Shown here piece after piece: positions 11,308 through 63,113 of a DNA stretch of 64,000 nucleotides; position 1 is the stretch's first letter; each line of letters begins with the position of its first letter. Made by a program: the position numbers and the translations under genes. Source of the DNA: Arthrobacter sp. SLBN-100 (GTDB taxonomy: Bacteria > Actinomycetota > Actinomycetes > Actinomycetales > Micrococcaceae); the NCBI RefSeq assembly GCF_006715305.1, contig NZ_VFMY01000001.1:2666001-2730000 (forward strand), given 5' to 3'. The notes below the pieces were generated by a model. That model saw only the letters and a list, made by a program, of their open reading frames with translations, was not told the origin of the DNA and ran no database searches.

Positions 11308-12306
11308 GTGCAGATGAGTCAAGCGTTGGTGAGGATAGCAGCCGGATGGCTGCTGGGCCTCATGCTTGCCGTGGCCGCTGCCGTCGTTGCCGTGAACTTG
11401 GTGAACCAAACTGTGGCCAGCCCGCAGCAGCCGGTGCGTGAGTATCTGGACGCCCTGCAAAGCGGTGACGGGGGCAAGGCGCTGGGGCTCCTGCGGGCCA
11501 CGGTGCCGCCCAGCAACGCCGCCATGCTGGACGGCACGGCGCTGCAGACCGCCGCTTCCCGCATTGCCAATGTGAACATCGGCGAGGCCGAGGAACGCCC
11601 GGGCGGCCAGGTGATGGTGCCCATGGAATACACCATCGACGGCAGCCGCCTCCGCACGGACTTCCAGCTGCAGAAAACGGGAACCGAGTGGATCTTCTTC
11701 AATACCTGGGCCTTTGTCCCGTCCCGGCTGCCTACTGTTGACGTCTCGGTGGTCAATTCCAGGGAGGCCACTGTCAACGGCGTGGACGTGAACATGCCCA
11801 ACGGCCGGAACTCGTTTGCGGTCTTCTATCCCGGCGAGTACGAGGCCACTGTGAATGGTGAGTACTTCTCTGCTCCCGCCACCCGCGCCACGGTTACTGC
11901 CCGCGACGCCCCGGTGGCCCCGCTCAACCTGCTGACCCAGGCCACCGACGACCTGAAGAAAGACGTCGCGGCGAAGGTCAAAGAATTCCTGGACGATTGC
12001 GCTGCCCAGGCGGTCAAGGAGCAGAAGCTCCAGCCGGACTGCCCCTTCTACTACGCCAGCAACAACCGGGTCCAGGACGGCAGCATCAAGTGGTCCGTCG
12101 CGGAATACCCCAACGTCTCCATCGAACCGTTCGACGGGCGCTGGGTGGTGGCACCGCTGGACGGCAAGGCCAAGGTGGAGGCCCTTCAGCAGAACCTGTT
12201 CACAGGAGCCTGGTATCCGCTGGACGAAGAGGTGGACTTCAGCTTCACCACCCGGCTGGATGTCTCCGGGGACGCCATCAAGGTCACGCCGCTCCTGAGC
12301 TTCTAG
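11308..12306 (+). CDS. Membrane-anchored extracellular protein of unknown function
   Basis: The product is about 332 residues. Three closely spaced in-frame starts exist (TTG 11302, GTG 11308, ATG 11314); AGGTAA at about 11291-11296 slightly favours the GTG. One N-terminal membrane segment (AAGWLLGLMLAVAAAVVAV) is followed by an extracellular part. That part begins with an NTF2-like stretch (REYLDALQSGDGGKALGLL) and continues with repeated beta-rich segments, including FYPGEYEATVNGEYF. A Cys pair near residues 230-245 (DDCAAQ and PDCPFYY) may form a disulfide. The pattern resembles DUF4878-type or zinc-ribbon-associated surface proteins, but I do not recognise a family. It appears to be a single-gene unit. 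Confidence 0.75.
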   Translation: MQMSQALVRIAAGWLLGLMLAVAAAVVAVNLVNQTVASPQQPVREYLDALQSGDGGKALGLLRATVPPSNAAMLDGTALQTAASRIANVNIGEAEERPGGQVMVPMEYTIDGSRLRTDFQLQKTGTEWIFFNTWAFVPSRLPTVDVSVVNSREATVNGVDVNMPNGRNSFAVFYPGEYEATVNGEYFSAPATRATVTARDAPVAPLNLLTQATDDLKKDVAAKVKEFLDDCAAQAVKEQKLQPDCPFYYASNNRVQDGSIKWSVAEYPNVSIEPFDGRWVVAPLDGKAKVEALQQNLFTGAWYPLDEEVDFSFTTRLDVSGDAIKVTPLLSF

Positions 12307-12356
12307 GTAGCCGCGTCACGCCACACCGGCCCAGTTTTGGTTGCCCGCCTGCAGGT

Positions 12357-13238
12357 TTACCAGCCCTCGTGGGCCCAGTTGCGTCGAAAACCGGGCTGGT
12401 GTGGTTGCGGCCACCGCAAAGAACCCCGGGCAAGAACTTCCCGGACCTGCGCCAGGACGGATTCGGGCGCATGGACCACGTCGTCGTAGAAGAACCTGAG
12501 CACGGGCAGCCCCTGCAGAATTGCCGAGTTGTCCCTGCGCCGGTCCTTCTTGAACTGCCGTGCCTCGAGGTGGAAGGCGAGCCCGTCGATCTCCACAATG
12601 AGGAATCCCTCCAAGAGGAAGTCCACACGCCCAATACCGTCGATCCAGACTTGGGTCTCTGTATGAATGCCGGCGTCCCTAAAAAGTACTCGCGCCAGGC
12701 TCTCAAGGAGGGAGTCTGCGCCGTGTTCAATCTTGGACACCACCTTTCGCGCCTTGCCGCATCGGCTTCCGTCAAGGTGGCGCAGTAGATACGGCAGATC
12801 GACGTCTCCGCGGTTGTAGGCGCACTCCACCATCACCAGTGACTCGAGTTCCGGCAGGCAGAGAAGGGCATGAAGCAGCACATCGGGAAGGGCTGCCAGC
12901 GTCCGATGCCGGGGCGGCTGGGTCAGGTCAGTACGGTGGCTGACACACCGGACGGTACTCCGGCCGTTGTTTTGCCAGTAGTGGGGCCTGGCAGGGGGTC
13001 GGAGCTGCCATAGGCCGTATGCAGGAGCGGCGGACACGCACGTGAGGAGACCGCGGGCGCGTCCTGCTGCCACCTGTTCAGCATTTGCGTCCGCCACGGC
13101 CAAAAGTCCTCGCTCCAGTCGCAGCACCTGGCCGCTGCGGACCGCCCGGCGAAGGCCCGTATCCGTAACACCTGCCGCCAGCAGGTCCCGCCGAAGCAAT
13201 ACTCCCCCGGCTGATTGAAGGATTTCCATTGGGTCCAT
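12357..13238 (-). CDS. DUF559-like nuclease-fold protein with AbiEi-like N-terminus
   Basis: A 293-residue protein. The N-terminal 70 residues look like the winged-helix start of AbiEi/type IV antitoxin-like proteins (ILQSAGGVLLRRDLLAAGVT). The C-terminal third is a Vsr/DUF559 PD-(D/E)XK-like domain: ADSLLESLARVLFRDAG, then the VDFLLEGFLIVEIDG core and FKKDRRRDNSAILQGLPVLR. The conserved acidic residues of the core (E..., D-F-L, E-I-D) are present, so activity is possible. Such proteins are very common and variable in Micrococcaceae genomes. Their role in DNA repair, defence or toxin control is unproven. It stands alone, with no toxin partner beside it. Confidence 0.8.
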   Translation of the reverse strand: MDPMEILQSAGGVLLRRDLLAAGVTDTGLRRAVRSGQVLRLERGLLAVADANAEQVAAGRARGLLTCVSAAPAYGLWQLRPPARPHYWQNNGRSTVRCVSHRTDLTQPPRHRTLAALPDVLLHALLCLPELESLVMVECAYNRGDVDLPYLLRHLDGSRCGKARKVVSKIEHGADSLLESLARVLFRDAGIHTETQVWIDGIGRVDFLLEGFLIVEIDGLAFHLEARQFKKDRRRDNSAILQGLPVLRFFYDDVVHAPESVLAQVREVLARGSLRWPQPHQPGFRRNWAHEGW

Positions 13239-13344
13239 CAGGCCACAATGTCTGCCCTCCAGGCCTGGCGGCAGCCTTGAGCGGCGCTATGTGGACAAGG
13301 TGGAGCCCACTCTGGCCCGCTTTTGGGGAGGAACACCAAATAAA

Positions 13345-13386
13345 AGTGGCCCGGTTTCCGCCCTGGGGCTGGAAAGCCGGGCCACT
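13345..13386 (-). terminator. Rho-independent terminator after the thioredoxin-NHL gene
   Basis: Arms 13345-13354 and 13377-13386 (AGTGGCCCGG/CCGGGCCACT) form a perfect 10-bp stem that extends inward with further pairs. On the minus strand it is followed by TTTTATTT. It lies 20 bases after the stop of the gene ending at 13407. Confidence 0.85.
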
Positions 13387-13406
13387 TCAGCACCGGGACC
13401 GGCAGG

Positions 13407-15428
13407 TCAGTCCATGCCGCGCAGGTCCAGCACCAGCTCGGTATCGCCGTCGGCCTGCAGCAGCACCGGGATACCCCAGTCCTGCTGGTACAGGTGGCAG
13501 GCGGCGTGGTCCGGAATCTCGCCGTCCTCGGTTTCCGGGCCGTCGCATGCTGCGGCGCGGGCGGTGATGTGCAGGACGCCTTCGGGCACGTCGGAGGACA
13601 GCTCAAGGGTGCGCAGGAGGCCCACCGAGGTTCCGCCGCCGGACACCAGCAGCTCGGGCGGCGTGGAGGAGATCTTCAGCTGGGTGGGATCACCCCAGCG
13701 GTCATCCAGTTTCTGCCCGGTGGGGGCTGTGAAACGAACGGTCAGCTCCAGGGGGCCGGGCGCAACCGGGCTCTTGGGCCGGTGGGTCTGGGACGCGCCC
13801 TCGTCCACCTGCTGGGCTTCCTTGGGGATGGGCACGTACACGAGCTGGTGCTGGTTGGCTTCCACCACCACCAGCAGCGGCTCGGAACCCGCCGACTGGG
13901 TGTGGTCCACGATCACGTCCGAGGGCTCGAGCAGCCCGCGCGCCAAGGTAGAGACAGTGCCGCTGGAGGGGTCGTAGCGGCGGACGGCACCGTTGTAGGT
14001 GTCGGCGATTGCCACGGAACCATCGGGCAAAACGGTCACGCCCAGGGGGTGCTGGAGCCGCGCTTCGGCCGCGGGGCCGTCCCGGAAGCCGAAGTCGAAC
14101 AGGCCCTTGCCCACGGCGGTTTCCACGGTGACCGTGCCGTCGTCGTCAAGGACCAGCTTGCGCAGGGCAGACGTTTCGGAGTCCGCGACCCAGATGTTGC
14201 CGTCGGCATCTTCAGCCAGGCCGGAGGACTGGGCGAACCATGCCTCATGCGCGGGCCCGTCCAGCAGGCCCTCCAGTCCGTTGCCGGCAACAATGGCTAC
14301 GGCACCGGTCAGCGGGTCAAAGCTGAAGATCTGGTGCGTGCCGGCCATGGCCACCACCACGGCGTTGAGCTTCCTGGACCATACGAGGTCCCACGGAGAG
14401 CTCAGGGAGACCTCCAGCGGGTGTTCGCTCAAGCGGCCGGTGAATCCGGCAGCGTCCTCATCAACCCGCGCCGGTCCGGTTTCCAGCAGGCGCTGCACGC
14501 CGTTGCCGGCCACGGTGGAGGCCTTGCCGTCCGTGAGCGAAAGACCGCGGAGCCGGTGGTTGACCGAGTCGGCAATCACGACGTCGTAGCCCGCCTTGGC
14601 GGCCACGTCTTCCGGCAGCAGGACCAGGCCCTGGGGCTCGTTGAACCGGGCGTCGGCGTCGTCACCGGCCGCGGGGCCGTCAACGTACCCCTTGGTGCCG
14701 GAGCCGTAGGTTGCCAGGACAGTCTGGAAGTCCGTGCCCAGTTCCACCAGGCGGTGGTGGCCGGTATCGGTGACCAGCCAGGAACCAGGTGTCGCTGAAC
14801 CCGACGCTGCGGCACCTGCCGCACTGCCGCCGTCGCTTTCTCCCTGTGATGCTGAACCGCGCCCGGCGGGGAGGAAGAGCGCCTTGCCGGGGAAGCGCAG
14901 CGTGCCGGAGGTGGGCTCGGGCGCCACGTAGGGGCCGGAGCCGCGGTGCAGCGTGCCCTTGGCTTCGTGTTCCGCAATGAGCTCGGGGATCAGTACCGCG
15001 AGCCCGTCCGCGTGGCCTTCGCCGGAGAGGTGCGCCACGATGTAGCCCTCGGGGTCAATGACCACCAGGGTGGGCCAGGCGCGGGCCGTATAGGCCTTCC
15101 ACGTGTCCAATTCCGGATCGTCCAGGACCGGGTGGTGGATCTCGTAGCGCTCCACGGCGGCGGCCAGCGCCAGCGGATCCGCCTCGTGCTCGAACTTGGG
15201 CGAGTGGACGCCCACGGTGACCAGGACGTCGGAGTACTGTTCCTCCAGCGGCCGCAGTTCGTCCAGGACGTGCAGGCAGTTGATGCAGCAGAAGGTCCAG
15301 AAGTCCAGGAGGACAATCTTGCCGCGGAGGGCTTCGAGGTCCAGCGATTTGCCGCCGGTGTTCAACCAGTTACGGCCCACCAGTTCGGAGGCTCGGACCC
15401 GGAGGTGGGTGCGTACTGTTTCGCTCAT
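13407..15428 (-). CDS. Thioredoxin-NHL repeat protein
   Basis: A 673-residue protein. Residues 15-160 form an AhpC/TSA-thioredoxin-like domain with active site WTFCCINC (Cys48 and Cys51 as the CXXC pair) and a cis-Pro region in ARAWPTLVVIDPEG. Residues 180-520 hold several NHL beta-propeller repeats, for example FNEPQGLVLLP, ADSVNHRLRGLSL, LQHPLGVTVLPDGSVAIADT and NGAVRRYDP. A C-terminal immunoglobulin-like part follows. No signal peptide is seen, so it is probably cytoplasmic. Homologues are NHLRC2-like thiol-redox scaffold proteins of unknown substrate. The start codon overlaps the stop of the upstream CopD-CtaG gene by one base (TGATG), so the two are coupled. Confidence 0.9.
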   Translation of the reverse strand: MSETVRTHLRVRASELVGRNWLNTGGKSLDLEALRGKIVLLDFWTFCCINCLHVLDELRPLEEQYSDVLVTVGVHSPKFEHEADPLALAAAVERYEIHHPVLDDPELDTWKAYTARAWPTLVVIDPEGYIVAHLSGEGHADGLAVLIPELIAEHEAKGTLHRGSGPYVAPEPTSGTLRFPGKALFLPAGRGSASQGESDGGSAAGAAASGSATPGSWLVTDTGHHRLVELGTDFQTVLATYGSGTKGYVDGPAAGDDADARFNEPQGLVLLPEDVAAKAGYDVVIADSVNHRLRGLSLTDGKASTVAGNGVQRLLETGPARVDEDAAGFTGRLSEHPLEVSLSSPWDLVWSRKLNAVVVAMAGTHQIFSFDPLTGAVAIVAGNGLEGLLDGPAHEAWFAQSSGLAEDADGNIWVADSETSALRKLVLDDDGTVTVETAVGKGLFDFGFRDGPAAEARLQHPLGVTVLPDGSVAIADTYNGAVRRYDPSSGTVSTLARGLLEPSDVIVDHTQSAGSEPLLVVVEANQHQLVYVPIPKEAQQVDEGASQTHRPKSPVAPGPLELTVRFTAPTGQKLDDRWGDPTQLKISSTPPELLVSGGGTSVGLLRTLELSSDVPEGVLHITARAAACDGPETEDGEIPDHAACHLYQQDWGIPVLLQADGDTELVLDLRGMD

Positions 15429-17584
15429 CAGCGTCCTTCCAGCTTGTTTCGTTCGGCCAGCCTGGCGTCGCGTTCAGCCAATTTGGCAAACATATCGTTG
15501 TAAGCGGTGAGATCGGCGTCGTTATTCCTGTCCGCCGCCCGGTCAACCCGTTTGGTCTCTCGTTGGTCCGACCGGGACCACATGATGGCCACGCCGATGG
15601 CCACCAGGAGCGTAGGCACCTCGCCGATGCCCCAGGCAACAGCACCGCCGGTCTGCTGGTCCAGCAGCGCGGACTGGCCCCAGGCACGGCCCAGGTTGCC
15701 GAAGTAGTCGGCGGCCAGGAGGTTGGTGCCGCCCATGATGGCCACCCCGAAGAAGGCGTGGAAGCCCATGGTGGCCAGGAGCAGCAGCAGCCGCATGGGG
15801 TACGGCGCACGGCGCGGCAGCGGGTCGGTGCCGATCATGCTCAGGATGAAGATGTATCCCGTGAGCATGAAGTGCAGGATCATCAGTTCGTGCCCCACGT
15901 GCTCCCGCATGGCGAACCCGAACAGGTCCGAGTAGTAGAACAGCACGATCGAGCCGGCAAAGTTGGCTGCGGCGAAGATCGGATGGGTAACGACCTGGGA
16001 GAACTTTGAGTGTACAAATACCAGCAGCCACTCGCGCGGGCCGCGCGAACCGTCTCCCCGCGGAGGCAATGCACGCAGGGCAAGCGTCACCGGCGCCCCG
16101 AGGACCAGGAAGATAGGCGCCACCATGGTCAGCGCCATGTGGTCCACCATGTGCGCGGAGAACAGTACGCGGCCATAGACCGACGGCGGCCCGGACGTGA
16201 TGTAGGTGAGCACCAGCAGGCCGATCACCCAGTTCACGGACCGGAACCACTGCCATTTGTCTCCGCGGCGGTAGATCCGCGCGACACCGAGGAAGTAGGA
16301 CACCAGCCCGAACAGCGCCACGGCGATCCACAGCCAGTCCAGACGCCACTCTGTGAGCCAGCGCGCGGGGGTCAGCTCCGGCGGGAGTTCATAGCCGCTG
16401 AGGATGAAGGCGGGCGAAGCGTCCGGGGCAAACGTGGTGGGTTGGGGCGGTGCCGACCTGCCCAGGGCTACGGCCACCCCTGACGTGGCTCCCATCACCA
16501 GGAATTCAGCCAGGACCAGCTGCCACAGGACCCGCCGCGAGGACATGGTGGAACCCTGGGCGCCCAGCTGAGGGATGACCCACTGCCGGTGCATCAAGCC
16601 GATCCCGCCCAGCACCAGGGTGGCGGCGGACTTGGCCAGGATCAGCTGGCCGTAAGGGGAACCAACAAGGTCGCCCCAGTTGGTGATCCGGATGCTCGCG
16701 TTGATGATGCCTGAGGCGAAGACCAGCACGAAGGCGAAGCCCGCCAGTGCCGAGAACCTGCGGAGCGTGGCTTCCGTGATGTCTGTTGAAGCGCCGGCTC
16801 TGGGCCCGGTGAGGATCCCGGACAGGAGCGCCAGAATGATGATGCCGCCCACCCAGGTGCTGACGCCTACCAGGTGCAGGCCAAGGGAGTTGATGGCTCC
16901 CTCGTGGTCGGAGGAGCTTGATGAGTGTCCGATCAGGGCCGTCGGCACCAGGCCGATGAGGGCCAGGACCAGGGTCAGGGCCAGCCCGCCCAGGGACCTG
17001 ACGCCGAACAGGGCTGTGGTTACCACGGCGGCAATGATGGTGACGGCGAGCCAGGCACGGCCCGTCTCGATGTCCGTCATGAAGTAGACCAGGGCCTGCG
17101 TGAACTGGGCGTCGCCGGAGATCGACTGTCCCGCGACATCAGAATAGGTCAGCACCAGGACGGCGATGGCGGACAGGGTCCATGCGGCACCCGCCGCCGC
17201 TGCGACGGACAGTGCGCGGGTGAAGGCCGGATGCTCTGGCTCCTCTGCGCCGTCCCCCTCCTGGCGCCTGTTGTGGCGGGCGAGGCGCTTCGGGAGGATG
17301 CCTACCGCGAAGATGAGGCCGCCGATGACCGTGGCCACAGAGATGTTGTGGATGGCCTTGGTGACGGGCAGGCCCCAGCGGACCAGGGCGCCGGGGTCCG
17401 AGACCTCACGGGCGGCGGCTGCACCGGAGAAAAGGAGCGCTGCCGCAAGGGCCAGGAAGAGTGCGCCCAGGCCTGCCAGCTGCCATGCGCTTGAGACGCC
17501 CACGGCACCGCTGCCCTGCCCCTGCACTCCCTTGCCGGAAGTTGGCGGGGTTGTTGTGGATTGGGGGTTTGCGGCGGAAGGCAC
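15428..17584 (-). CDS. CopD-CtaG fusion membrane protein
   Basis: A 718-residue integral membrane protein starting at GTG. The N-terminal half has a CopD-like copper-resistance domain with several helices (VTKAIHNISVATVIGGLIFAV; the LHLVGVSTWVGG helix bears the conserved His). The C-terminal half is a caa3-type oxidase assembly factor CtaG domain, with VLFSAHMVDHMALTM containing the HMVDH motif, HEVGHELMI-like sequence (REHVGHELMILHFMLTGY) and MGFHAFFGVAIMGG. Such fusions are common in actinobacteria and are thought to move copper across the membrane towards cytochrome oxidase. The thioredoxin-NHL gene is coupled downstream. The ribosome binding site is weak. Confidence 0.9.
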   Translation of the reverse strand: MPSAANPQSTTTPPTSGKGVQGQGSGAVGVSSAWQLAGLGALFLALAAALLFSGAAAAREVSDPGALVRWGLPVTKAIHNISVATVIGGLIFAVGILPKRLARHNRRQEGDGAEEPEHPAFTRALSVAAAAGAAWTLSAIAVLVLTYSDVAGQSISGDAQFTQALVYFMTDIETGRAWLAVTIIAAVVTTALFGVRSLGGLALTLVLALIGLVPTALIGHSSSSSDHEGAINSLGLHLVGVSTWVGGIIILALLSGILTGPRAGASTDITEATLRRFSALAGFAFVLVFASGIINASIRITNWGDLVGSPYGQLILAKSAATLVLGGIGLMHRQWVIPQLGAQGSTMSSRRVLWQLVLAEFLVMGATSGVAVALGRSAPPQPTTFAPDASPAFILSGYELPPELTPARWLTEWRLDWLWIAVALFGLVSYFLGVARIYRRGDKWQWFRSVNWVIGLLVLTYITSGPPSVYGRVLFSAHMVDHMALTMVAPIFLVLGAPVTLALRALPPRGDGSRGPREWLLVFVHSKFSQVVTHPIFAAANFAGSIVLFYYSDLFGFAMREHVGHELMILHFMLTGYIFILSMIGTDPLPRRAPYPMRLLLLLATMGFHAFFGVAIMGGTNLLAADYFGNLGRAWGQSALLDQQTGGAVAWGIGEVPTLLVAIGVAIMWSRSDQRETKRVDRAADRNNDADLTAYNDMFAKLAERDARLAERNKLEGR

Positions 17585-52903: not shown

Positions 52904-54029
52904 CCTTTCGGTTGGCCGTGACCAGGAGCCACAGCAGGAACGGGGCGCCGAGCGCGCCGGTGATCACACCGACCGGCAAAACGGTGCCGTCCAGCAGCAG
53001 GGGGGCAAGGTTGGCGGCGGCGTAATCGGCCGCGAGGACAATAACGGCACCAACCAATGCCGACGCCGGGAGGCTGGCTTTCCCGGTGAAGCGCCGCGCG
53101 ATGGGGCCGGACAGGAAGGCGACGAATGAGACAGGCCCGGCTGCCGCCGTCGCCACTGCTGCCAGCGAGACGGCGGTGATCACCAGCGCGAGCCGGGTGG
53201 CACCTACTTTGATGCCCAGCCCGGCGGCGGCGTCGGGGCCGAGTTCCAGGATGCGCAAGGGGCCGGCGACGGCGGCCACGGCGGGGATCAGGACGGCGAG
53301 GGCGAGGGCCAGGATGCCGGCGCGGTCCCAGTTGGCGGAGTTGAGGGATCCGTTGAGCCAGACGAGGGCGTCGGCCGCGGTGCGGATATCGGCGCGGGTC
53401 ATCAGGAAGTTGACCACTGCCTGCAGCGCAGCCGCGATTCCTACGCCGGCCAGGATGAGCCGGTTGCCGGCGGCATCACCGCGGCCGGCTCCGCGCAGGG
53501 TGCCGCCGGTGGAGATGGCGTAGATGATGGCCGCCACGCCGAGCGCGCCGCCCAGGGCTGCCCCGGAGACCGCTGCGCCGGAGGAGCCGAACACCACGAT
53601 GGCCACGACGGCGGCTGCACTGGCACCGTGGCTGATTCCGATAACGTCCGGGCTGGCCAGCGGGTTGCGGAGCATGGTCTGGAACAGGGCGCCGGCCAAG
53701 CCGAACGCGAGGCCGATCATGGTGCCGATGACCGCCCGCGGCAGCTTGTTCTCCATAACAATGAAGCTGGCGCCGGGGATCTTTTCACCGCCGGCCAGGT
53801 GCGCGAAGAGGATCCTGGAGAAGTCCGGGATGGTGACGGTGTAGCTGCCGAGCAGGACGGAGACTGCGAAGAGGACCACGACGGCGGCTGCCAGGACGGC
53901 GGTCCGGTTCAGCAGCAGCCTCCCCCGGCCTTGCCCTATCAGTTGTGGTTCCCCTGGCCCCGTTTTGGCTGCCGTAAGTGATAGGGCAACGGGGGTTTCA
54001 GCGGGTTTGGTGTTTGGAGCGGGAGTCAC
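52896..54029 (-). CDS. Iron-siderophore ABC transporter permease (FecCD type), second subunit
   Basis: I use the GTG at 54029 (377 residues), which overlaps the stop of the first permease by 4 bases (GTGA); the frame is open further upstream but only antisense to or within that permease. FecCD signatures are KLPRAVIGTMIGLAFGLAGA, LFQTMLRNPLASPDVIGISH and GAGPVSFVAFL-like AAGPVSFVAFLSGPIARRF, with about nine to ten membrane helices. A soluble N-terminal tail of about 40 residues precedes the first helix. It forms a heterodimeric channel with the other permease. Confidence 0.93.
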   Translation of the reverse strand: MTPAPNTKPAETPVALSLTAAKTGPGEPQLIGQGRGRLLLNRTAVLAAAVVVLFAVSVLLGSYTVTIPDFSRILFAHLAGGEKIPGASFIVMENKLPRAVIGTMIGLAFGLAGALFQTMLRNPLASPDVIGISHGASAAAVVAIVVFGSSGAAVSGAALGGALGVAAIIYAISTGGTLRGAGRGDAAGNRLILAGVGIAAALQAVVNFLMTRADIRTAADALVWLNGSLNSANWDRAGILALALAVLIPAVAAVAGPLRILELGPDAAAGLGIKVGATRLALVITAVSLAAVATAAAGPVSFVAFLSGPIARRFTGKASLPASALVGAVIVLAADYAAANLAPLLLDGTVLPVGVITGALGAPFLLWLLVTANRKDA

Positions 54030-55117
54030 AGCCCGGCCCCCTTGCCCCGGCGGATGAGCCAGACGAAGACGGGTGCGCCGACGAGTGCGGTCATGATGCC
54101 GGCCGGGACTTCGCCCGGAAGAAGCACCACGCGGCCGATGATGTCCGCGCCGAGGAGCAGCACCGGCGCCAGCACCAGCGAGAACGGCAGGATCCAGCGG
54201 TAATCCGGGCCGGCGAGCAAACGGACAGCATGCGGGATGACCAAGCCAATAAAACCAATGGGACCGGCCAGCGCGGTGGCCGAACCGCACAGCAGCACGA
54301 TTCCGAGGGCGGTGATGCCGCGGACCAGGCCTACCCGCTGGCCGAGGCCACGGGCAATGTCATCGCCGAGCGCCAGGCTGTTGAGGATGCGGCCGGTCAG
54401 CAGGACGATGAGCGCGCCGACGGCGAGGAAGGGCAGGCCGGGCAGAACTACGGACCAGTCCCGCCCGGCCACGCCGCCCACCTGCCAGAAGCGGAACCTG
54501 TCCAGGGTGTCCTGGCTGGAAACAAGAATGACGTTCATGAGGGAGAACAGGCCCGCATTGAGCGCGGCGCCTGCCAGGGCGAGCTTCACTGGGGTGGCGC
54601 CGTCCCTGCCCAGGGAGGCGATGAGGTAAACGACGACGGCGGCAACTGCTGCCCCGACGAAGGCGAACCAGATGTAGCCGGAGAAACTGGCAACACCAAA
54701 AACGTAAATCCCTGTCACCACAGCGAGGGCGGCCCCGGCGTTCACGCCCATGATGCCGGGATCGGCCAGCGGATTGCGGGCCACACCCTGCATGGCGGCG
54801 CCTGCCAGCCCCAATGCTCCCCCCGCCAGCAGGCCCAGGACCGTCCGCGGGATTCGGGCGTGGACCACGGCATGGTCCCCGTTGGCAGGATCGAAGGCGA
54901 TGAGGGCCTGCCACACCGTCTCCAAGGGAAGCCCCCGGGCTCCGATGGCCAGGGAAGCCCCGGCCACGAGTGCGAGTACAACGACGGCGGCCAGCAGCCA
55001 GGCGGCCCGCTTCCCACGGGAAGCGTCGGCGCGGAACAGGGCACGCGCTCCCTTCCCCGGCACGGAAGTGCCGGGGAAGGGAGCCCGGTGGGCCGCCGCC
55101 GTCGTACTCTGCGTCAC
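54026..55117 (-). CDS. Iron-siderophore ABC transporter permease (FecCD type), first subunit
   Basis: A 363-residue permease with the family motifs RIPRTVLGLLAGGALGLAGA, MQGVARNPLADPGIMGVNAG and LAGPIGFIGLVIPHAVRLLA. About nine membrane helices are apparent. The first 45 residues are polar and rich in Arg and Ala. It lies 10 bases after the binding-protein gene and overlaps the second permease. It works with that permease and the ATPase to carry a ferric siderophore into the cell. Confidence 0.94.
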   Translation of the reverse strand: MTQSTTAAAHRAPFPGTSVPGKGARALFRADASRGKRAAWLLAAVVVLALVAGASLAIGARGLPLETVWQALIAFDPANGDHAVVHARIPRTVLGLLAGGALGLAGAAMQGVARNPLADPGIMGVNAGAALAVVTGIYVFGVASFSGYIWFAFVGAAVAAVVVYLIASLGRDGATPVKLALAGAALNAGLFSLMNVILVSSQDTLDRFRFWQVGGVAGRDWSVVLPGLPFLAVGALIVLLTGRILNSLALGDDIARGLGQRVGLVRGITALGIVLLCGSATALAGPIGFIGLVIPHAVRLLAGPDYRWILPFSLVLAPVLLLGADIIGRVVLLPGEVPAGIMTALVGAPVFVWLIRRGKGAGL

Positions 55118-55127
55118 GGAACCGTTG

Positions 55128-56219
55128 CTACTTCACTGTGTCTGCTGCGGTGGCCAGCTGCGGCAGGAACGCGTCCAGTGACCAGGGCAGGCTGAGCGGT
55201 GAAGACGCTGAGATGGACAGCGTGAGGGTGTTGTCGGAGTCGGCAACCAGGGCGCCGTTCTTGATGGCCGGGATCTGGCTGAGCAGCGGGTCCGACTTGA
55301 TGGCGTCGGCGGTGGAGGCATCCGGAACCCAGGTCACGAACAGGTCGGACTCAAGCTCGTTGGCTTTTTCCGCGGACCACGGGATGAAGAATTCCTTGGA
55401 GCCCTTGGAGCTGTCTTCAACCACCGGAGCGAGCTTCATGCCGATTTCGGAGAGGAACCGGGGGCGGTTGTCATTGGCGGTGTAGACATTGACGCCGTCG
55501 CCCTTGGCAGGCTCAAGGTTGCCGTAGATAAAGCTCTTGCCCGCAATCTGCGGGTACTTGGCAACCTTTTCCTTGATGGTCGCCTCGGTATCCGAGATCA
55601 GCTTGGTGGCTTCGGCGTCCTTGCCGAGGGCCTTGCCAATGATGGACGTCGAGTCCTGCCAGGAGGTTCCGTATGCGAGTTCAGGGTGTGCGACTACCGG
55701 CGCGATCTCACTGAGCTTCTTGTAGTCCTCTTCCGTGAGGCCCGAGTAAGCGGCGAGGATGACGTCCGGGGTGAGCTTGGCGATCTCGGTGAAGTTGATG
55801 CCGTCTGCCTCGGAGTACTGCGCGGGAGCCTTGTCGGACCCGAACTCGGCGCCGAGGTCCTTCAGCGCTGCGTCCTTCCAGGGGGTGGAGCCCTGGTCAT
55901 TGCCGCCCCATTCATTCTTGGGAACGCCTACCGGCACAACACCCAAGGCTATGGCGACGTCGTCATTGACCCAGGAGACGGTGGCGACACGCGTGGGCTG
56001 CTTCTCGATGATGGTCTTGCCGTAAACGTGCTCGATGGTAACGGGGAACTGCGAGCTGCTGGAGCCGGGTGCGCTGGCGTCGGTGCTGGAGGACGCAGGG
56101 CCTGTGGAACAGGCGGAGAGGGTGAGCGCCGCGGCGGCCAGAACGGCCACGGCCTTGCCGGCAGACTTGAACAGCGTGCGGCGGGTGGCGCCGGGCCCGG
56201 AGAAGAGGGGGGAAGTCAC
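55128..56219 (-). CDS. Iron-siderophore-binding lipoprotein
   Basis: A 363-residue class III binding protein (FepB/FhuD type). The N-terminus combines twin arginines (RRTLFK, residues 13-18), a hydrophobic stretch and the lipobox LSAC (Cys37), suggesting Tat or Sec export and lipid anchoring. Periplasmic-binding motifs are VTIEHVYGKTIIEKQPTRVA, SWVNDDVAIALGVVPVGVPK, LTPDVILAAYSGLTEEDYKK and TSIIGKALGKDAEA. It captures a ferric siderophore outside the membrane. It is first in the five-gene operon, behind a predicted iron box, so expression should rise under iron limitation. Confidence 0.94.
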   Translation of the reverse strand: MTSPLFSGPGATRRTLFKSAGKAVAVLAAAALTLSACSTGPASSSTDASAPGSSSSQFPVTIEHVYGKTIIEKQPTRVATVSWVNDDVAIALGVVPVGVPKNEWGGNDQGSTPWKDAALKDLGAEFGSDKAPAQYSEADGINFTEIAKLTPDVILAAYSGLTEEDYKKLSEIAPVVAHPELAYGTSWQDSTSIIGKALGKDAEATKLISDTEATIKEKVAKYPQIAGKSFIYGNLEPAKGDGVNVYTANDNRPRFLSEIGMKLAPVVEDSSKGSKEFFIPWSAEKANELESDLFVTWVPDASTADAIKSDPLLSQIPAIKNGALVADSDNTLTLSISASSPLSLPWSLDAFLPQLATAADTVK

Positions 56220-56414: not shown

Positions 56415-57098
56415 TCAACGGTAGGAGAAGCTCATCAGCACCGACTTCAGCGCCTGGCCTTCAGCACCCCAGTACCACGCTTTCGCCGCCTCATCATCCG
56501 CAAACGGCGGACCGGTGAACAGCACGTCGGCGGTCAAAATGCGGTCGCCGAGCTTGATCAGCCCGTATTGCACCTGCCCGTCCGGCGAGACGGGCAATCC
56601 CGCCGTAAGGCCCATCCGGTAATGATCAGCGCCATCACCGCGATCAACAAAGAACGACGAATGGGGCGTGGGAACAAAGCGCCCCCGCAGTCCCAGGACG
56701 GGGTCCGTCTCGATGACGGTCCTGCTGACAGGCCCCGCCGTGGCGTCACTGACCTGGCTGTAATAGATGTTGATCTGCTCGGTGCCGCCGGCATCGTAGA
56801 CGGTGGCCGTCTCCACTGCGGGGGACGCTGATACCTGCTCGTGTTTCACGTGCCAGCCCGCCGGATAAGCAAACGACAGGCGGCCATCTGCGAACGTGAA
56901 GGCTTCCGGCCCCTGGGGCACGGGGGAGGAGGTGGCGGCGGGAATGATTGATGCTGGCGGGCTCTCCTCAGCCGCCTGGGCGGCGGGGCCGCTGGAGGGA
57001 CCGCCGTCCCCGGCAGGGCCGTCGGCACAGCCCGTGAGGGTGAGGGCAGCGATCGCGGTGAGCGCCATGAAGGTGGTGGCGCGCTGTGCTGGGCGCAT
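56415..57098 (-). CDS. Lipoprotein of unknown function
   Basis: A 227-residue protein with a lipoprotein signal peptide (hydrophobic TTFMALTAIAALT and lipobox LTGC, Cys24), a Ser/Pro/Ala linker to about residue 70 and a compact exported domain (FADGRLSFAYPAGWHVKHEQ, YDAGGTEQINIYYSQVSD, YGLIKLGDRILTADVLFTG). The domain resembles the PsbP/Mog1-like beta-sheet folds of many actinobacterial lipoproteins; function is unknown. It occupies the place directly downstream of jetC where jetD would be expected, but has no relation to that nuclease. Confidence 0.82.
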   Translation of the reverse strand: MRPAQRATTFMALTAIAALTLTGCADGPAGDGGPSSGPAAQAAEESPPASIIPAATSSPVPQGPEAFTFADGRLSFAYPAGWHVKHEQVSASPAVETATVYDAGGTEQINIYYSQVSDATAGPVSRTVIETDPVLGLRGRFVPTPHSSFFVDRGDGADHYRMGLTAGLPVSPDGQVQYGLIKLGDRILTADVLFTGPPFADDEAAKAWYWGAEGQALKSVLMSFSYR

Positions 57099-57289
57099 TT
57101 ATGGTGCCTTTCAAGGGAAGGCCGCCACTCTCCACGGGCGTCAGATGCAGGACCCAGCGTTCCACAAGTACCCGACAGGAGGATGAAGGCGAGTGTTTGA
57201 TGCCGACCAGCATGACACCAGGACAGCAGTCTTCAACAGCTCCCGCGCAATATATCCATCGATTTGTTATAAAGGAATCCCTGGCATGG

Positions 57290-60200
57290 CTAGCGCAAAA
57301 TGATGTCCACCGGGTTCGCTTCTGAGCGCCAGATTCCTTCTTCACCGGGCCGCGGCCTGATAACCGGTGCGGTCAGCACGCCTGAGCGGTTGGTCCGCTT
57401 GTCACGCAGGATTTCGGTGACCGAGCCCAGGTGCCGGGACAGGTCGATGACGTTCTCGGGGGCGGCCAGCAGCAACTGGAACCCGAATTCGTGCAGCGCC
57501 TTGATCCCGGCACCCGCGAACTCCTCGGATGCCAGCACAAATGCCTCGTCCATCATCACGGTGCCGTATGTGGTGAAGCCCTGCTCCGCGATGCCCAGCT
57601 GGTAGCTCAGTGCCGCGGCCATGATGAAGGCCGTGAAACGCTGGCGCTCGCCACCGGACATGGATCCCGTGTCCGCGTGCATAAAGACCTCGGTCTTCTT
57701 CGCCCCGCCCTTTTTGCCCGGCGCCGGCCCGGCAACTTCCCGGTGCTCCTTGCACTGGATAAACAGGTGCCCGCGCACGTCCAGCACCTCGGCCCGCCAC
57801 CGCCGGTCCTCCGGCGCCTGCGAGCCCAGCCGCTTGACCAGGGTTTCCAGGGACTTGTAGCGGGCGGTGAGCTCGGCGTCGTCGTCCTTTTCCACGTCGG
57901 CGCCTTCGGCCCGCGCCCCCTCGGACTTTGCCGGCCGCGTGTGCCGCGCCTTGAGAGCGTTCTGGATGGCGTCCTTGAACTGCTTGGCCGTGGGCGGCAG
58001 CGTCTGCTTGATATCAAGCTCCAGGAAGCTGCCCTCGTGGAAGTTGACCTGCGAGAGAATGCCGTTCAGCGGGAGGATACGGCTGGTGATGGAGCGGCGT
58101 TCCTCATCGAGGAGATGAAGCAGCGTGCTGAAGGATTCATGCGTGCGCTGGTTAAAGAACTGCCGGAACTCCGCTTCCTGGGCGGGCAGGCCGTCGCTCA
58201 CAATCGCGTGGTAGCGGGTTTCAAACTCGCCGGCAGCACCAATGGTGGTGCCATGGTCGGCCGAGATGGCGCTGCCCCACTCGCGGACGAAGCCCTCGAA
58301 AATCCTCGTAAGGCGTTCGGCGGTGGTTTGCCCGCGCGACTCCGCTGCATGCAGTTCACCCAGCAGCGCGGTGCGGACCCGGTTGGCGAGGTTATCCAGC
58401 TCGTGCATCTCACCGACGTCGCCGAAGTCAGCAAAGTAAGGTTCCAGCGCGGTGACGGTAGCGTCCGACGGCGGCGCCTGGGCCAGGCGGTCACGGGCAG
58501 CTTCCAGCAGGGAATCGGCAGCGGTCAGTTGCCGGTCCAGGGCTTTGTATTCGCTTTGCAGGACGGCGGCCGCCTCGGTGCTGGACTGGTGCTTCTGCCG
58601 CACCACCTCGATGGTGGCGCGGAGGGGCTCCAAGTCTGCCTGGGCGGCCAAGGCGTCCTTCAGCCGCTGCTCGATCCGGCCCAGCTCGTCCGCCGCCACT
58701 GCCGCCGATACCTGTTCCCAGGGCCGGTGGTCCTCCGCGATACGGCGCAGGGCGTCGAGCTGCCGGCTCATTCCCTGGTGCGAATCCTCGCGGGTTTGGG
58801 CGAGTTCAGCCGCCTTGGCGACCTCCTGCCGCAGGTCCTCCACCTGGCCGGCAACGAGCTCCAGCTTGGCGGCGTTGTCGAACCCGAGGACGTAATCCTG
58901 GCGGCTGGTGAAGCGGTCGTCCTTCTCCACGGTGTGGCGGTTGCGCTTGACCACGCCGCCCAGGCTGAGGCCACGATCCAGCCCAGAGAGCTCGTCCGGG
59001 TCCTCCACGCAGGGGTAGGCGAAGTCCAACGCGATGCGCTCACGAATCCAGGACCCCGCTTCGGCGGCGATGCCGGTGGTGAGGATGTCCAGCTTGGTCA
59101 GCAGGTCGCCGTCGTGCACGTCCTCCAGCGCCAGCGCGCCGCCGGAGAGCGGCTTCGAAACATCCACCGCCCGCAGCGCGCCGCGGACGTTGTGGTCGTT
59201 GAGGTAGCGGGTCACCGCGGCAAAGTGCTCGCCCGGCACCAGCAGCGTGGTGGCGAGGTTGCGGAGCGCCCGTTCGGCGGCGGGCCGCCAGCGTTCCTCC
59301 CCCTCCGCCAAGTCCATGAGCTCACCCGCGAACGGCATCCGGTCTTCCGGAATGCCGGTGGCGCCGGCGATCGCCGCCCGGTTTTCAACGCTCGACGGCG
59401 GCAGCAGGGACTTGCGGGTCTTCAGCGACACGAGCTCCTGCTCAGCCGCGGCCAGCTCACGCTTCTTCGTGGCGTGCGCGTCGAAGGCTTCAAAGCGGAG
59501 CTCCTGCAGCGCCTGGGAGTCATCCTTGAGCTCGGCGGACCTGGCGGCAGCCTGCTCATGCGCCTGTTCCCAGCCTTCCTCAGTCCACTCAAGCTGCAGG
59601 CCGGCGTCGGACAGCGCCTGGCGTGCAGCTTCCTCCAGCTGCTGGCGAAGCTTCAGGCCCACGCGGGCGTTCTCCAGCGACTGCTCGATGGCGGAGATCG
59701 CGTTGCCGCCCTGGTTGTTGTAATCCGTCTCCAGCTGGCGCAGTTCCTTGGCCAGGCCGTCCCGGACTGTACGCTCTGCGCCGAGCTCCTTGGCCTTCGC
59801 CTGGGCCAGCTCCTTGAAGCGCGCCAGGGTCTTCTGGTGGACCGTGACCGCGAGTTTCTGCTTGTACGCCTCGAACTCCTCGCCGGCGAGGTCCCGCAGC
59901 CGGTTCGCCTCCAGCAGCGACTGCGCGTAGTCCCGGTTCAGGCCAGGGACCGGGGCCAGCTGGTCCCGCTGCTGCCGGACGTCCTCCAGCCGCTGCCGGA
60001 TGGACATCAGGTTGCTGAACTCCTCAACCACGTCGTCCGCCGCCGCGAGCGTTGCCGGGGCGTCCAGGACCTGGTCGCGGAAGAAGGTGTTGACGCTGCC
60101 GCCCAGGCCCTTGCCGGCCTGGATGACGCGCAGGAGCGGCAGGGCCTGGTCCGAGTTGATCCCCAGCAGCCGGCGGAACCGCTCCGCGAAGGCCTTGTGC

Positions 60201-60769
60201 ACGTCGAAGACCTGGGCGTCAGGGAAAATCGTCTCCAGGGCAGCCTTGGTGAACCGCTTGTCCGCGATGCCCTCAAGCGCCTCGAGGTCGAGCGGGTCAT
60301 GGTCGATGAGGTAAAAGCGGCCGACGCTCGACTCCGTGCCGTTCTTCGGCAAATCGAACAGGGCCGAGACCGTCACCCTGGTGCCGGCGGCGTTATCAAA
60401 CGTCAGCGCGACGGCGGACCAGGTGGCACCCGGCCGCTGGAAAGCACTCGCCGAGCCCTCACCCACGGCTTTGTCGCCCACCTTGCCGCGCATATAGGTG
60501 AACGTCGTCCTCTTGTCCTCAACAGCACCGCCCGAACGTTGGGCGGCAGCTTCGTTGGACCTGGGCCTCGCATCGAAAACCCGGAGCATGGCATCGAACA
60601 GCGTCGACTTGCCCACGCCCGAATTACCCGTCAGCAGCGTCCCGTTCCGGTCCACGTGCATGGTGTGGGCGCCATGGAACGTACCCCAGTTGACCACCTG
60701 CACCAGGGCAAGGCGCATCTGGCCCGGGTTCGTCACGTCGCCGATCGGCAGCATGCTCGCGATGCTCAC
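57290..60769 (-). CDS. jetC: JetC, MukB/SMC-like ATPase of a Wadjet/MksBEF system
   Basis: A 1159-residue SMC-like protein. The N-terminal ATPase half has Walker [10 protein letters not shown] (residues 48-56) inside [20 protein letters not shown]. Long heptad-rich coiled coils run from about residue 280 to 480 and 640 to 850 around a hinge-like globular part ([20 protein letters not shown]). The C-terminal half has the signature [20 protein letters not shown] and Walker B-like [16 protein letters not shown]. It matches JetC, the loop-extruding motor that recognises small circular DNA. Its start overlaps jetB by 4 bases. A 1122-codon open frame on the opposite strand is a codon-bias shadow. 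Confidence 0.93.
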
Positions 60770-61668
60770 TGGGCATCCTCCACTTCGGTGGTTGCTTGAG
60801 GCGCCGACGGCGATGCCGCCCCCGCCCCTTCGCCATCGGCGCTGGACAGCTCACCTTCCAGCGAATCGCCACTGTCGCGGTCGGTTTCTATCTCCAGCAT
60901 CGCCTCTGTGCCGGTGGGGTCTGTGGTGGCTGCTGCGAGGGCTTCTATTTGGGCGGGGATGTCGCCGATGTTTTCGAAGGGGAGGGCCAGGGGCAGGGCG
61001 TTGGAGATGGTGTAGACGTCGTCCAGGCCGGTGGGGAGGAGGAGTTGGCGGGCCAGGAGCTTGGTGAGGGCCCTGTTGACCACGTCCGAGTCCCGGAGCG
61101 CGTCCTGCTGCCCTGCGGGCTGGTAGTGGGCCACCAGGTCGGCGATTTCTTCGCGCGTGATGGTGGGATCTGTCTGCGCGGTGACGTGCCGGTCCAGGAG
61201 CAGGCGCATCCTTAGCAGAACGATGGTCTCTACCCGGCTGAGCGCACGCTGCTGACGGAGGATGCTGGAGCGGGCACTGCCTCCGACGGCGTCCGGATCA
61301 ACCGGACGCAGCACGGCGATCTTCCGTTCGTGGTCCAGCTCCATGGTGAGGAACAGCTCGGACAGCCGGCTGCGCAGGATTACCTGGTGATCCAACAGGA
61401 CGGTCCAGAGTTTCTCGTCCCGGCCGCCGTCCACGTACGGACCCTTAAGGAGTTTCACCAGCGCCTGCCGCACCTTCATGGACAACACTCCGGTATCGCC
61501 GGGAAAGAGGGCGGCACCGTCCACGAACGTGTCGCGGGGGGTGGTTCCTCCGGTGATTGTTGAGCTTGCCGAAATCCCCGCCGGGGTTACGTCAGGCTCA
61601 AACACCGGATCGGTGACGGGCTCAACCACCGGGGCAGCCGTCGTCGTCATCTCTTCAGTCATCGTCAA
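60766..61668 (-). CDS. jetB: JetB, MukE-like subunit (DUF4194)
   Basis: A 300-residue protein of the DUF4194 family. The core spans about residues 50-245: [60 protein letters not shown] and [20 protein letters not shown], the winged-helix kite-type fold that binds the kleisin. Acidic low-complexity tails flank it at both ends. It overlaps jetA and jetC by 4 bases on each side, giving a coupled operon and fixed stoichiometry. Confidence 0.92.
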
Positions 61669-63113
61669 TCCTTTGGGAGGGTGACCAGCGGCAGATAGGC
61701 CCTGCGCGTGGTGCCGTCGATCTGTTCGAAGTCCAGGGCGTCCACCGCTTGGTTGTTGAAGGCGGCGCCTTCATGCAGTGCGTGCGAGAGCAGGGCGCGG
61801 ATGGTGTTGATGTGCTGCTCCTCCGGCGGCAGCTGCTGCCACGCTTCGGAAAGGGTGGACGCGCCGGCCATGGCGGACCGCACCACGCCGGGTTTGGCTT
61901 TGCCGGTCCTCGGCGAGCGCACGCGGTCGGAATCACTGAAGGCGATGGGGTCGGCCAGTTTGGGCGGAGCCGCGAACTCGTCCGGATCAAAGAGCTTCAC
62001 CATGGAGAGCGACTCGAATCCCGCGTTGAAGAGCACAGGCCCAGGCACCAGGCCGGGGCGTTCCCGTTCGTACGGAAGCGACCGGATGGCCTGCTCCGCT
62101 TCCCGCAGGACCTGCCGGAGCCGGACGGACTGGCGGAAGTCGTCACTTTGGACGTAGGTGTTGAGGCTTTCGCTGAGCTTGCCGTAGATCCGCTGGATCT
62201 GGCTGTGCTGCTGCCGGAGTTCGGCCACCAGGTTCTTCAGGGTTTCCCGGTCCTCGGGCGAGAGGTCGTCCGCGAACTGCCGGCTGAGGACCTCGCCTAT
62301 GGCAGAGCGGAACCTCAGCTGCTGTTGCGGGTCCTCCAGGAATGCCGTGAAGGAACGGAAGGTCCGGCCTTCGGGGCTCTGGCGGAGGCGCTTGTCAGCT
62401 TCCAGGACCTGGGCCATGGTGGCGCCCTTGGTCAGTGACTCCTCGATGATCTGGTTGCGCAGTCCGCCCACCAGTTCCTCGATCCGGTCGCGCATCTTCT
62501 TGTAATCGGCCGGCAGGCTCGCGGCGAGGTCCAGGATGTTCCCGGCAGCCTCCACGGCTTCGTCGTCATCGAGCAGGCCGTCGAACTCGCCTGTACTGAT
62601 GTCCTGGATCAGCTGCTGGCGCTCTTCGATTTCATCTTCCAGGGCCTCGAGGCGGGCGCTCTGGTCCGGGTTGGTCTCGTTGGCGAGCTTCTCCACGTCG
62701 CCGAGCAGTGTCCCAAGCCGGGAACCGTTGAGGGTGGAGCGGTCACTGGAAAGGCTGTCCAGGAACGCGAGCACGCGGGCTGCCGGTTCGGTGACCTCGT
62801 AAACGATCTGCCCGGACTGGTTGCGCCGCGTCAGGAACTGCCGCCGCGTCCACTCGTCGCCGAACGTTTTCCCGTTGGCCCCGCCGCCCAGCCCGGGCTC
62901 CTGCCGCCGGAGCTCCTCAAGGAAGGAGTCGACGTCGGCATGGAATTCCTCGAGCGGCAGCTGCGGCCGGGTGCGGGTAAAGGATGCCTGCAGCACCGCG
63001 ATCACCCAGGGCGCGGAGCGCGTCAGGGCCCAAGCAGGCCCTTTGGTGAGGAGCTCGAGGTCCCGAAGCCGGGCGCTGATGGCGTCAGCGGATGACCTGG
63101 CGGAGCGGGGCAC
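61665..63113 (-). CDS. jetA: JetA, MukF-like kleisin subunit (DUF3375)
   Basis: A 482-residue DUF3375 protein with a GTG start at 63113 supported by AAGGAGA. Recognisable parts are the N-terminal winged helix ([20 protein letters not shown]), the [20 protein letters not shown] segment with the [13 protein letters not shown] helix, a coiled-coil middle ([20 protein letters not shown]) and the C-terminal [12 protein letters not shown]. As kleisin it bridges the JetC heads. It is first in jetA-jetB-jetC. Two 11-bp direct repeats (63132-63153) sit directly upstream. Confidence 0.92.

What the first reader, a model, noticed from the sequence alone, without database searches (positions are those of the whole stretch)
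57099..63113. Wadjet/MksBEF operon jetA-jetB-jetC without the jetD nuclease
jetA, jetB and jetC are intact by length and motif and coupled by 4-base overlaps. Established knowledge: Wadjet systems need JetD (DUF3322/DUF2220, Toprim-like) to cut plasmid DNA, and it normally follows jetC. Here jetC ends at 57290, 191 non-coding bases follow and then a lipoprotein gene. The operon therefore encodes a loop-extruding SMC complex with no visible effector. It could work as a condensin-like MksBEF, use a jetD encoded elsewhere or a new effector, or be a defence system that lost its toxic part. The adjacent lipoprotein is an unlikely substitute.
Basis: partly seen in the sequence, partly recalled or inferred. 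Interest (0 to 1): 0.75.

Follow-up and report, generated by a model that had tools for sequence, protein, structure and literature searches.

The report
Nuclease-free Wadjet turned chromosome condensin
Soil bacteria related to Arthrobacter carry a DNA-looping machine that looks like the Wadjet anti-plasmid system but has no DNA-cutting part, and its inheritance suggests it is a housekeeping machine for organising the chromosome rather than a weapon.

Summary
In detail: jetA-jetB-jetC are intact, overlap by 4 bases, and no jetD follows. The genome has one jetD, 1.47 Mb away in a second, complete jetABCD whose JetC is only 28% identical.

This is not a recent wreck. The window-type JetC is in 90 of 91 genus genomes and 116 of 245 family genomes; in all 111 loci fetched it comes as jetABC without jetD. 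It forms one clade (38 tree rows, 100% support) with intact ATPase residues. 55 of 91 genus genomes have no jetD match at all. In 30 genomes JetC distances follow Smc's (Mantel r 0.91) at half the amino-acid rate (dN/dS 0.04 against 0.08, closest pairs); in ten of them, jetD of the classical Wadjet diverges faster and follows Smc less well. No neighbour is constant across genera.

In another family (f11), 46 of 47 genomes lack Smc; exactly those carry a different JetC, without jetD in all 18 checked. The one genome keeping Smc lacks it.

Best reading: a JetD-less type I complex serving as a second, vertically inherited chromosome condensin, working like P. aeruginosa MksBEF. Function is inferred, not shown. 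New variant of a known kind; defence surveys may count such loci as Wadjet.

The parts
61665..63113 (-). jetA / mksF-like kleisin, 482 aa (DUF3375)
   Evidence: predicted fold (weak model, pTM 0.34) hits JetA chains first
60766..61668 (-). jetB / mksE-like KITE subunit, 300 aa (DUF4194)
   Evidence: predicted fold hits JetB of PA14 and E. coli first, then MukE
57290..60769 (-). jetC / mksB-like SMC ATPase, 1159 aa; Walker [13 protein letters not shown], signature SGGERQR, Walker B MMDEAF
57099..57289 (.). 191-base stretch after jetC where jetD would be expected; no jetD remnant found
56415..57098 (-). lipoprotein-like gene; a neighbour, not a constant partner (its family is next to jetC in 22 of 82 genus loci, within three genes in 26)

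Best explanation
The operon encodes a complete SMC-kleisin-KITE ATPase (JetC-JetA-JetB) of the type I Wadjet lineage that lacks the JetD nuclease and is fixed in the Arthrobacter-like Micrococcaceae as a second chromosomal condensin beside canonical Smc. Mechanism (inferred from type I JetABC and from MukBEF/MksBEF): ATP-driven DNA entrapment and loop extrusion that organises or segregates the chromosome and, having no nuclease, does not cut. Shown here: gene content, intact ATPase residues, absence of jetD at the locus, clade-wide presence, vertical inheritance, strong purifying selection, and in another family a different, also jetD-less JetC in exactly the genomes without Smc. Inferred: loss (rather than original lack) of JetD, loop extrusion, chromosomal target, cellular role.
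For: Window-type JetC in 90 of 91 genus genomes, 86 as one unbroken match; the miss, G027, is 68% complete. In 116 of 245 family genomes, 11 of 32 genera, at 39% identity or more; the next JetCs have 32%. jetA-B-C on one strand in 111 of 111 fetched loci, jetB/jetC 4-base overlap in 103, jetD in 0. Walker A K, SGG and Walker B DE invariant in 38 of 38 tree rows. JetC distances track Smc's in 30 genus genomes: Mantel r 0.91, 0 of 2000 permutations as high; slope 0.50; dN/dS 0.039 against 0.077 in the 15 closest pairs. Contrast in 10 of those genomes: classical JetD, mean distance 0.287, r 0.52 with Smc; Smc 0.164; window-type JetC 0.081, r 0.92. Family f11: Smc over cut-off in 1 of 47, the f11-type JetC in the other 46, with no jetD within 10 kb in all 18 loci checked; the exception G584 has a true Smc and a classical jetABCD. 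Precedent: a review calls P. [quoted passage not shown] MksBEF acts there in chromosome segregation (PMC7485682, abstract and introduction).
Against: No functional data. The window's genus keeps Smc (E 6e-79 or better in all 91 genomes), so the complex is not the sole condensin there. The window clade and f11 as sisters are weakly rejected (p-AU 0.028; groups named after the tree was seen), so f11 is an analogy, not a direct test. Smc loss is not tied to jetD-less JetC alone: G125 (family f4, 99% complete) has only a weak Smc match (4.5e-6) and a JetC with jetD, and G140 is also weak (there only the best 4 candidates per genome were scored). C. glutamicum MksBEFG, which keeps its nuclease, does not fold the chromosome (PMC7083940, passages). 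Classical JetD also follows Smc somewhat (r 0.52, 8 of 2000 permutations as high). Pfam's MksE model is not reached by this JetB (22.6 bits, cut-off 27). 36 of 91 genus genomes, G000 among them, have a PF09983 match, so cross-use there is not excluded.
Confidence: 0.7

Rival explanations
1. It is still a defence sensor: JetABC recognises small circular DNA and recruits a JetD or other nuclease in trans, from the second Wadjet or an unlinked gene.
For: A jetD with a complete jetABC exists in the same genome; PADLOC models call all three proteins JetA1/B1/C1.
Against: 55 of 91 genus genomes have no PF09983 match and 54 of them keep the window-type JetC; in the family sample 77 of 116 carriers have none. 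The two JetCs share 28% identity. DUF3323, which I recall as part of type II JetD, is in 3 of 91 genus genomes and not in G000. Inheritance is more vertical and slower than jetD's.
Confidence: 0.1
2. Non-cutting defence: JetABC compacts or silences invading circular DNA without a nuclease.
For: Same DNA-sensing core as Wadjet by sequence and predicted fold; SMC complexes can restrict DNA without cutting it (Smc5/6 on viral DNA, recalled).
Against: JetC in 90 of 91 genus genomes and co-diverging with Smc, unlike a patchy defence gene; the genus neighbours that were scanned are metabolic and transport genes, not a defence island.
Confidence: 0.13
3. A defence operon that lost its toxic part and is decaying.
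For: JetD is absent; 4 of 90 genus genomes have the JetC match in pieces (G026, G030, G033, G053).
Against: dN/dS 0.039-0.064, lower than Smc's; ATPase residues invariant in 38 of 38 rows; two of the four broken cases are in genomes of 79% and 92% completeness with 6% contamination.
Confidence: 0.03
4. An unlinked, genus-core partner that is not a JetD relative has replaced JetD.
For: Linkage is not strict in f11: jetA and jetC lie up to about 13 kb apart (L296) and in L300 neither jetA nor jetB is within 18 kb upstream of jetC.
Against: No constant neighbour across 11 genera; no positive evidence for such a partner. Unlinked partners were not searched for.
Confidence: 0.04

Closest known systems
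Wadjet type I (JetABCD / MksBEFG / EptABCD)
   Same: DUF3375 kleisin, DUF4194 KITE, SbcC-like SMC in the order A-B-C; best PADLOC and PDB matches.
   Different: No JetD in any of the 38 clade rows; signature SGGE (38 of 38) where JetD-bearing JetCs have 30 Q, 3 E, 1 A of 34; JetC genus-core and vertical, whereas PF09983 is in 36 of 91 genus genomes.
Pseudomonas aeruginosa MksBEF (condensin without nuclease)
   Same: Three-gene SMC-kleisin-KITE complex without a nuclease, beside Smc; described as organising and segregating the chromosome (PMC7485682, abstract and introduction).
   Different: This JetB matches DUF4194, and Pfam's MksE model only below its cut-off. Direct comparison with PAO1 MksBEF was not made.
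MukBEF of enterobacteria
   Same: Same architecture; predicted JetB and JetA folds hit MukE and MukF after the Jet chains. f11 resembles MukBEF's taking over from Smc.
   Different: Far in sequence; in the window's genus Smc is kept.
f11-type JetC (this work)
   Same: No jetD in 11 of 11 tree rows, intact ATPase residues, 46 of 47 family genomes.
   Different: Stands in genomes without Smc; separate clade with signature SGGQNERL; its jet genes are mostly dispersed; JetB does reach Pfam's MksE model (32.5 bits).

Membership tests
Wadjet type I | JetA with DUF3375 | tested here: met
   298.7 bits, cut-off 28.6; JetA1 867 bits
Wadjet type I | JetB with DUF4194, KITE fold | tested here: met
   96.6 bits, cut-off 32.7; predicted fold hits 8dk1_E at 5.1e-10
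Wadjet type I | JetC SMC-like ATPase with intact motifs | tested here: met
Wadjet type I | JetD nuclease in the operon | tested here: not met
   none in the window or in 111 relatives
Wadjet type I | restricts plasmids | not testable with these tools
   needs transformation assays
Wadjet type I | JetD-contact motif of JetB (IFDR) | not tested
   known to me only from a review passage; the primary paper is not held; N-termini were printed but not alignable to the solved JetBs with confidence
MksBEF (condensin without nuclease) | SMC, kleisin and KITE genes together, without MksG | tested here: met
MksBEF (condensin without nuclease) | JetB reaches the Pfam MksE model | tested here: not met
   22.6 bits, cut-off 27
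MksBEF (condensin without nuclease) | occurs beside Smc | tested here: met
   Smc in G000, 914.9 bits; ScpA and ScpB not searched
MksBEF (condensin without nuclease) | acts on the chromosome | not testable with these tools
   needs Hi-C, ChIP-seq, segregation assays
Smc-ScpAB | TIGR02168 over cut-off | tested here: not met
   window JetC 23.4 bits, cut-off 567

The most novel reading that the evidence does not exclude
Type I Wadjet has been turned into a chromosome condensin in the Actinomycetota by loss of JetD, in up to three lineages: in the Arthrobacter group as a second condensin more conserved than Smc itself, and in another family (f11) as the sole condensin, having replaced Smc in a MukBEF-like takeover. 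If so, over half of the type I JetC loci sampled in this order (61 of 110) may not be defence systems.
Probability: 0.55. Interest if true: 0.82.

Novelty: new variant of a known kind. Interest (0 to 1): 0.68.

Why it matters
How defence SMC complexes and chromosomal condensins convert into each other is open; a review (PMC10586767, passages) only speculates that MukBEF and MksBEF descend from Wadjet. Here one bacterial order offers a natural series: classical jetABCD; jetABC beside Smc, more conserved than Smc; and a jetD-less JetC without Smc. That makes the conversion testable in culturable soil bacteria. It also raises the question whether surveys overcount Wadjet: one reports Wadjet in 42% of Actinobacteria against 7% of other bacteria (PMC10482375, passages), and a Paenarthrobacter paper lists a JetA, JetB, JetC locus as a Wadjet beside a full JetA1-D1 one, without comment in the passages seen (PMC11719660). 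Whether those counts hold loci like this one was not tested.

Tried and rejected
Effector in the neighbourhood: gene families around 82 genus loci and 27 other-genus loci and up to four genes downstream of jetC in 58 jetD-less loci gave no partner constant across genera. Within f11 a same-strand gene of about 660-1130 aa does follow in 11 of 11 loci; it was not identified. Lipoprotein as effector: rejected for patchiness, though my gene caller and clustering may miss diverged copies.

JetD remnant: tblastn with 34 JetD proteins, 0 hits in the window and in 111 loci. parS in the window: none with up to 2 mismatches.

Single loss of JetD: not settled. All three jetD-less groups as one clade: not rejected (p-AU 0.285); window+f11 alone: weakly rejected (0.028). 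The tree itself joins the window clade to the third group (99%).

Mistakes corrected: one search gave Mantel r of about 0 because antisense ORFs were picked in some genomes; one search replaces it. In one search the group 'window_clade' wrongly took in f11-f19 rows; one search replaces it. In one search I meant the DUF3322 model but searched PF11796 (DUF3323). Loci L197-L199 were missed by the gene caller; one search covers them. In one search, eight JetC fragments were left out.

Full report
OBSERVATION. The three genes are as described: jetA 61665-63113, jetB 60766-61668, jetC 57290-60769, all on the minus strand, each pair overlapping by 4 bases. Pfam gives DUF3375, DUF4194 and AAA_29 + SbcC_Walker_B; PADLOC gives JetA1, JetB1, JetC1. 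JetC aligns with solved E. coli JetC over nearly its whole length, JetA with solved JetA over residues 23-351. JetB has no PDB match by sequence, but its predicted fold (mean pLDDT 75) hits JetB of PA14 and E. coli first and MukE next. The JetA model is weak (pTM 0.34) but also hits JetA first. After jetC come 191 bases and a lipoprotein-like gene. No JetD trace is in the window.

THE OTHER jetD. The own genome (4.94 Mb, two contigs) has one PF09983 match. It lies in a second, complete operon at about C1:4194.5-4201.3 kb, 1.47 Mb away. The two JetCs are 28% identical.

HOW FAR IT REACHES. Genus: of 91 genomes (own included) 90 have the window-type JetC: 86 as one unbroken match; G026, G030, G033 and G053 in pieces. 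The miss, G027, is 68% complete. These counts are of JetC alone. Of the same 91, 36 have any PF09983 match, several partial (count). Read by eye, where both lie on one contig they are about 1 Mb or more apart, also counted round the circle. Family: 116 of 245 genomes in 11 of 32 genera carry a JetC at 39% identity or more, with a gap down to 32% (counts). 39 of the 116 have a PF09983 match anywhere; on a shared contig the nearest is about 268 kb away (G327, read). A named scan kept the best 80 of 145 loci: Arthrobacter, Pseudarthrobacter and Paenarthrobacter, with one Micrococcaceae MAG.

LOCUS ANATOMY. I examined 111 loci: the 80 named ones, 30 from other genera of the family and one more genus genome (L201, which duplicates L169). 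In all 111 jetA, jetB and jetC lie on one strand; 103 have the 4-base jetB/jetC overlap; none has JetD by a purpose-built HMM or by tblastn. In five of the 80 (L097, L113, L132, L145, L151) the contig ends only 0.6-2.4 kb past jetC. Three loci gave odd jetA-jetB spacing: L189 has about 5.3 kb between them; L190 and L193 probably reflect over-long ORFs. In the genus the flanks are syntenic, with aldo/keto reductase, acyl-CoA dehydrogenase, FecCD and periplasmic binding protein genes. Between genera nothing but jetABC is constant. The own operon lies about 0.21 Mb from dnaA.

PHYLOGENY. FastTree of 99 JetCs (65 without jetD in the fetched flanks, 34 with): the window clade is 38 of 38 without, 100% support, on a long branch. 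A mixture-model tree of 47 of those rows puts the window clade, f11 and a third group (f8, f13, f14, f15, f19) each on one side of a branch, joins the window clade to the third group (99%), and has two jetD-bearing rows in the third. In the full tree the third group is 15 without and 4 with jetD, one of the four (L248) on a long basal branch; one jetD-less row, L217, sits among jetD-bearing rows. In an order-wide sample of 248 genomes, 61 of 110 JetC loci lack a PF09983 match within 10 kb; eight JetC fragments were left out of that count.

SELECTION AND INHERITANCE. In 30 of the 91 genus genomes (those with the best JetC matches, so leaning to close relatives) I compared window-type JetC with canonical Smc. 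Distances correlate at r 0.91 (0 of 2000 permutations as high); JetC changes half as fast (slope 0.50); dN/dS medians are 0.039 against 0.077 (15 closest pairs), 0.039 against 0.075 (53 pairs) and 0.064 against 0.109 (367 pairs, synonymous sites near saturation). In ten of them that also hold a classical Wadjet, JetD gives mean distance 0.287 and r 0.52 with Smc (8 of 2000 as high), window-type JetC 0.081 and r 0.92, Smc 0.164. The ATPase residues are invariant in 38 of 38 rows.

SMC AND FAMILY f11. Smc (TIGR02168) gives some match in all 149 genomes of the relatives set and passes the cut-off in 130. All 91 genus genomes have E 6e-79 or better. The four f11 genomes there have only 7.6e-6 to 3.5e-8. 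Over the whole family, with 11 candidates scored per genome, 1 of 47 passes (G584, 900 bits; the next best match anywhere has 44 bits), and the f11-type JetC (67-100% identity) is in exactly the other 46. 42 of the 47 are at least 90% complete and at most 5% contaminated. jetD was checked at 18 f11-type loci by PF09983 and at 11 of these also by my HMM: none; the other 28 were not checked. G584 instead has a true Smc and a classical jetABCD. This exact exchange is the strongest sign that such complexes can do a condensin's work. Against reading too much into it: G125 (family f4) also lacks a good Smc match, yet its JetC has a jetD. f11 is unnamed here, and ScpA and ScpB were not searched. Of nine f11 upstream regions, JetA was found in 7 and JetB in 8, mostly kilobases from jetC.

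HOW IT MOST LIKELY WORKS. By homology to JetABC and MukBEF/MksBEF: ATP-driven entrapment and loop extrusion on chromosomal DNA (inferred). Without JetD, completed extrusion of a small circle would not end in cleavage (inferred). In the window's genus it works beside Smc, as reported for P. aeruginosa (PMC7485682, abstract and introduction). Counter-case: C. glutamicum MksBEFG, which keeps MksG, does not fold the chromosome (PMC7083940, passages).

LITERATURE. [quoted passage not shown] aeruginosa (PMC10586767, passages). 'Arthrobacter'+'MksB' finds no paper. 'Arthrobacter'+'Wadjet' finds 5; I read passages of two: one tabulates a JetA, JetB, JetC locus without comment in those passages, the other does not name JetD in its main text. 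Searches with 'Brachybacterium'/'ScpA'/'condensin' and 'Dermabacteraceae'/'SMC'/'chromosome segregation' list no title on Smc loss in such a family (15 of 113 and 10 of 2738 listed). Five Wadjet or MksBEF searches list no title on such an actinobacterial condensin. All cover open-licence PMC papers only.

VERDICT. Real, not an artefact, and more than a broken defence system: a clade-wide, JetD-less type I complex with the marks of a housekeeping condensin. New variant of a known kind.

Noticed in passing
family f11 (47 genomes); L202-L210, L226, L249, L296-L304: 46 of 47 genomes lack canonical Smc and carry the f11-type JetC, jetD-less in 18 of 18 loci checked; G584 keeps Smc and has a classical jetABCD (L305). 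Probably a Smc replacement. The family is unnamed; by size and GC I guess Dermabacteraceae, which no call supports.
   Followed up: partly
L296-L304: In most f11 regions jetA, jetB and jetC are kilobases apart with other genes between, yet contiguous in L303.
   Followed up: partly
L211-L225, L239, L244, L246, L247: A third, mostly jetD-less JetC group (f8, f13, f14, f15, f19) with an SGGE signature; some members have jetD, e.g. L225 without and L239 with it in the same genus.
   Followed up: partly
G125 (family f4): 99% complete genome with only a weak Smc match (4.5e-6) and a JetC that does have a jetD nearby.
   Followed up: no
L189 (G354) 12063-17412: About 5.3 kb with several genes inserted between jetB and jetA.
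   Followed up: no
order sample: Six PF09983 matches have no retyped JetC within 10 kb; two of them (G162, G142) do have a JetC fragment beside them among the rows left out, so four remain (G108, G555, G526, and a fragment in G002).
   Followed up: partly
G000 contig C2: The genome has a second contig of about 0.33 Mb, possibly a large plasmid.
   Followed up: no
window 54026-56219 (-): Periplasmic binding protein and FecCD permease: looks like an iron/siderophore uptake cluster downstream of the lipoprotein gene.
   Followed up: partly
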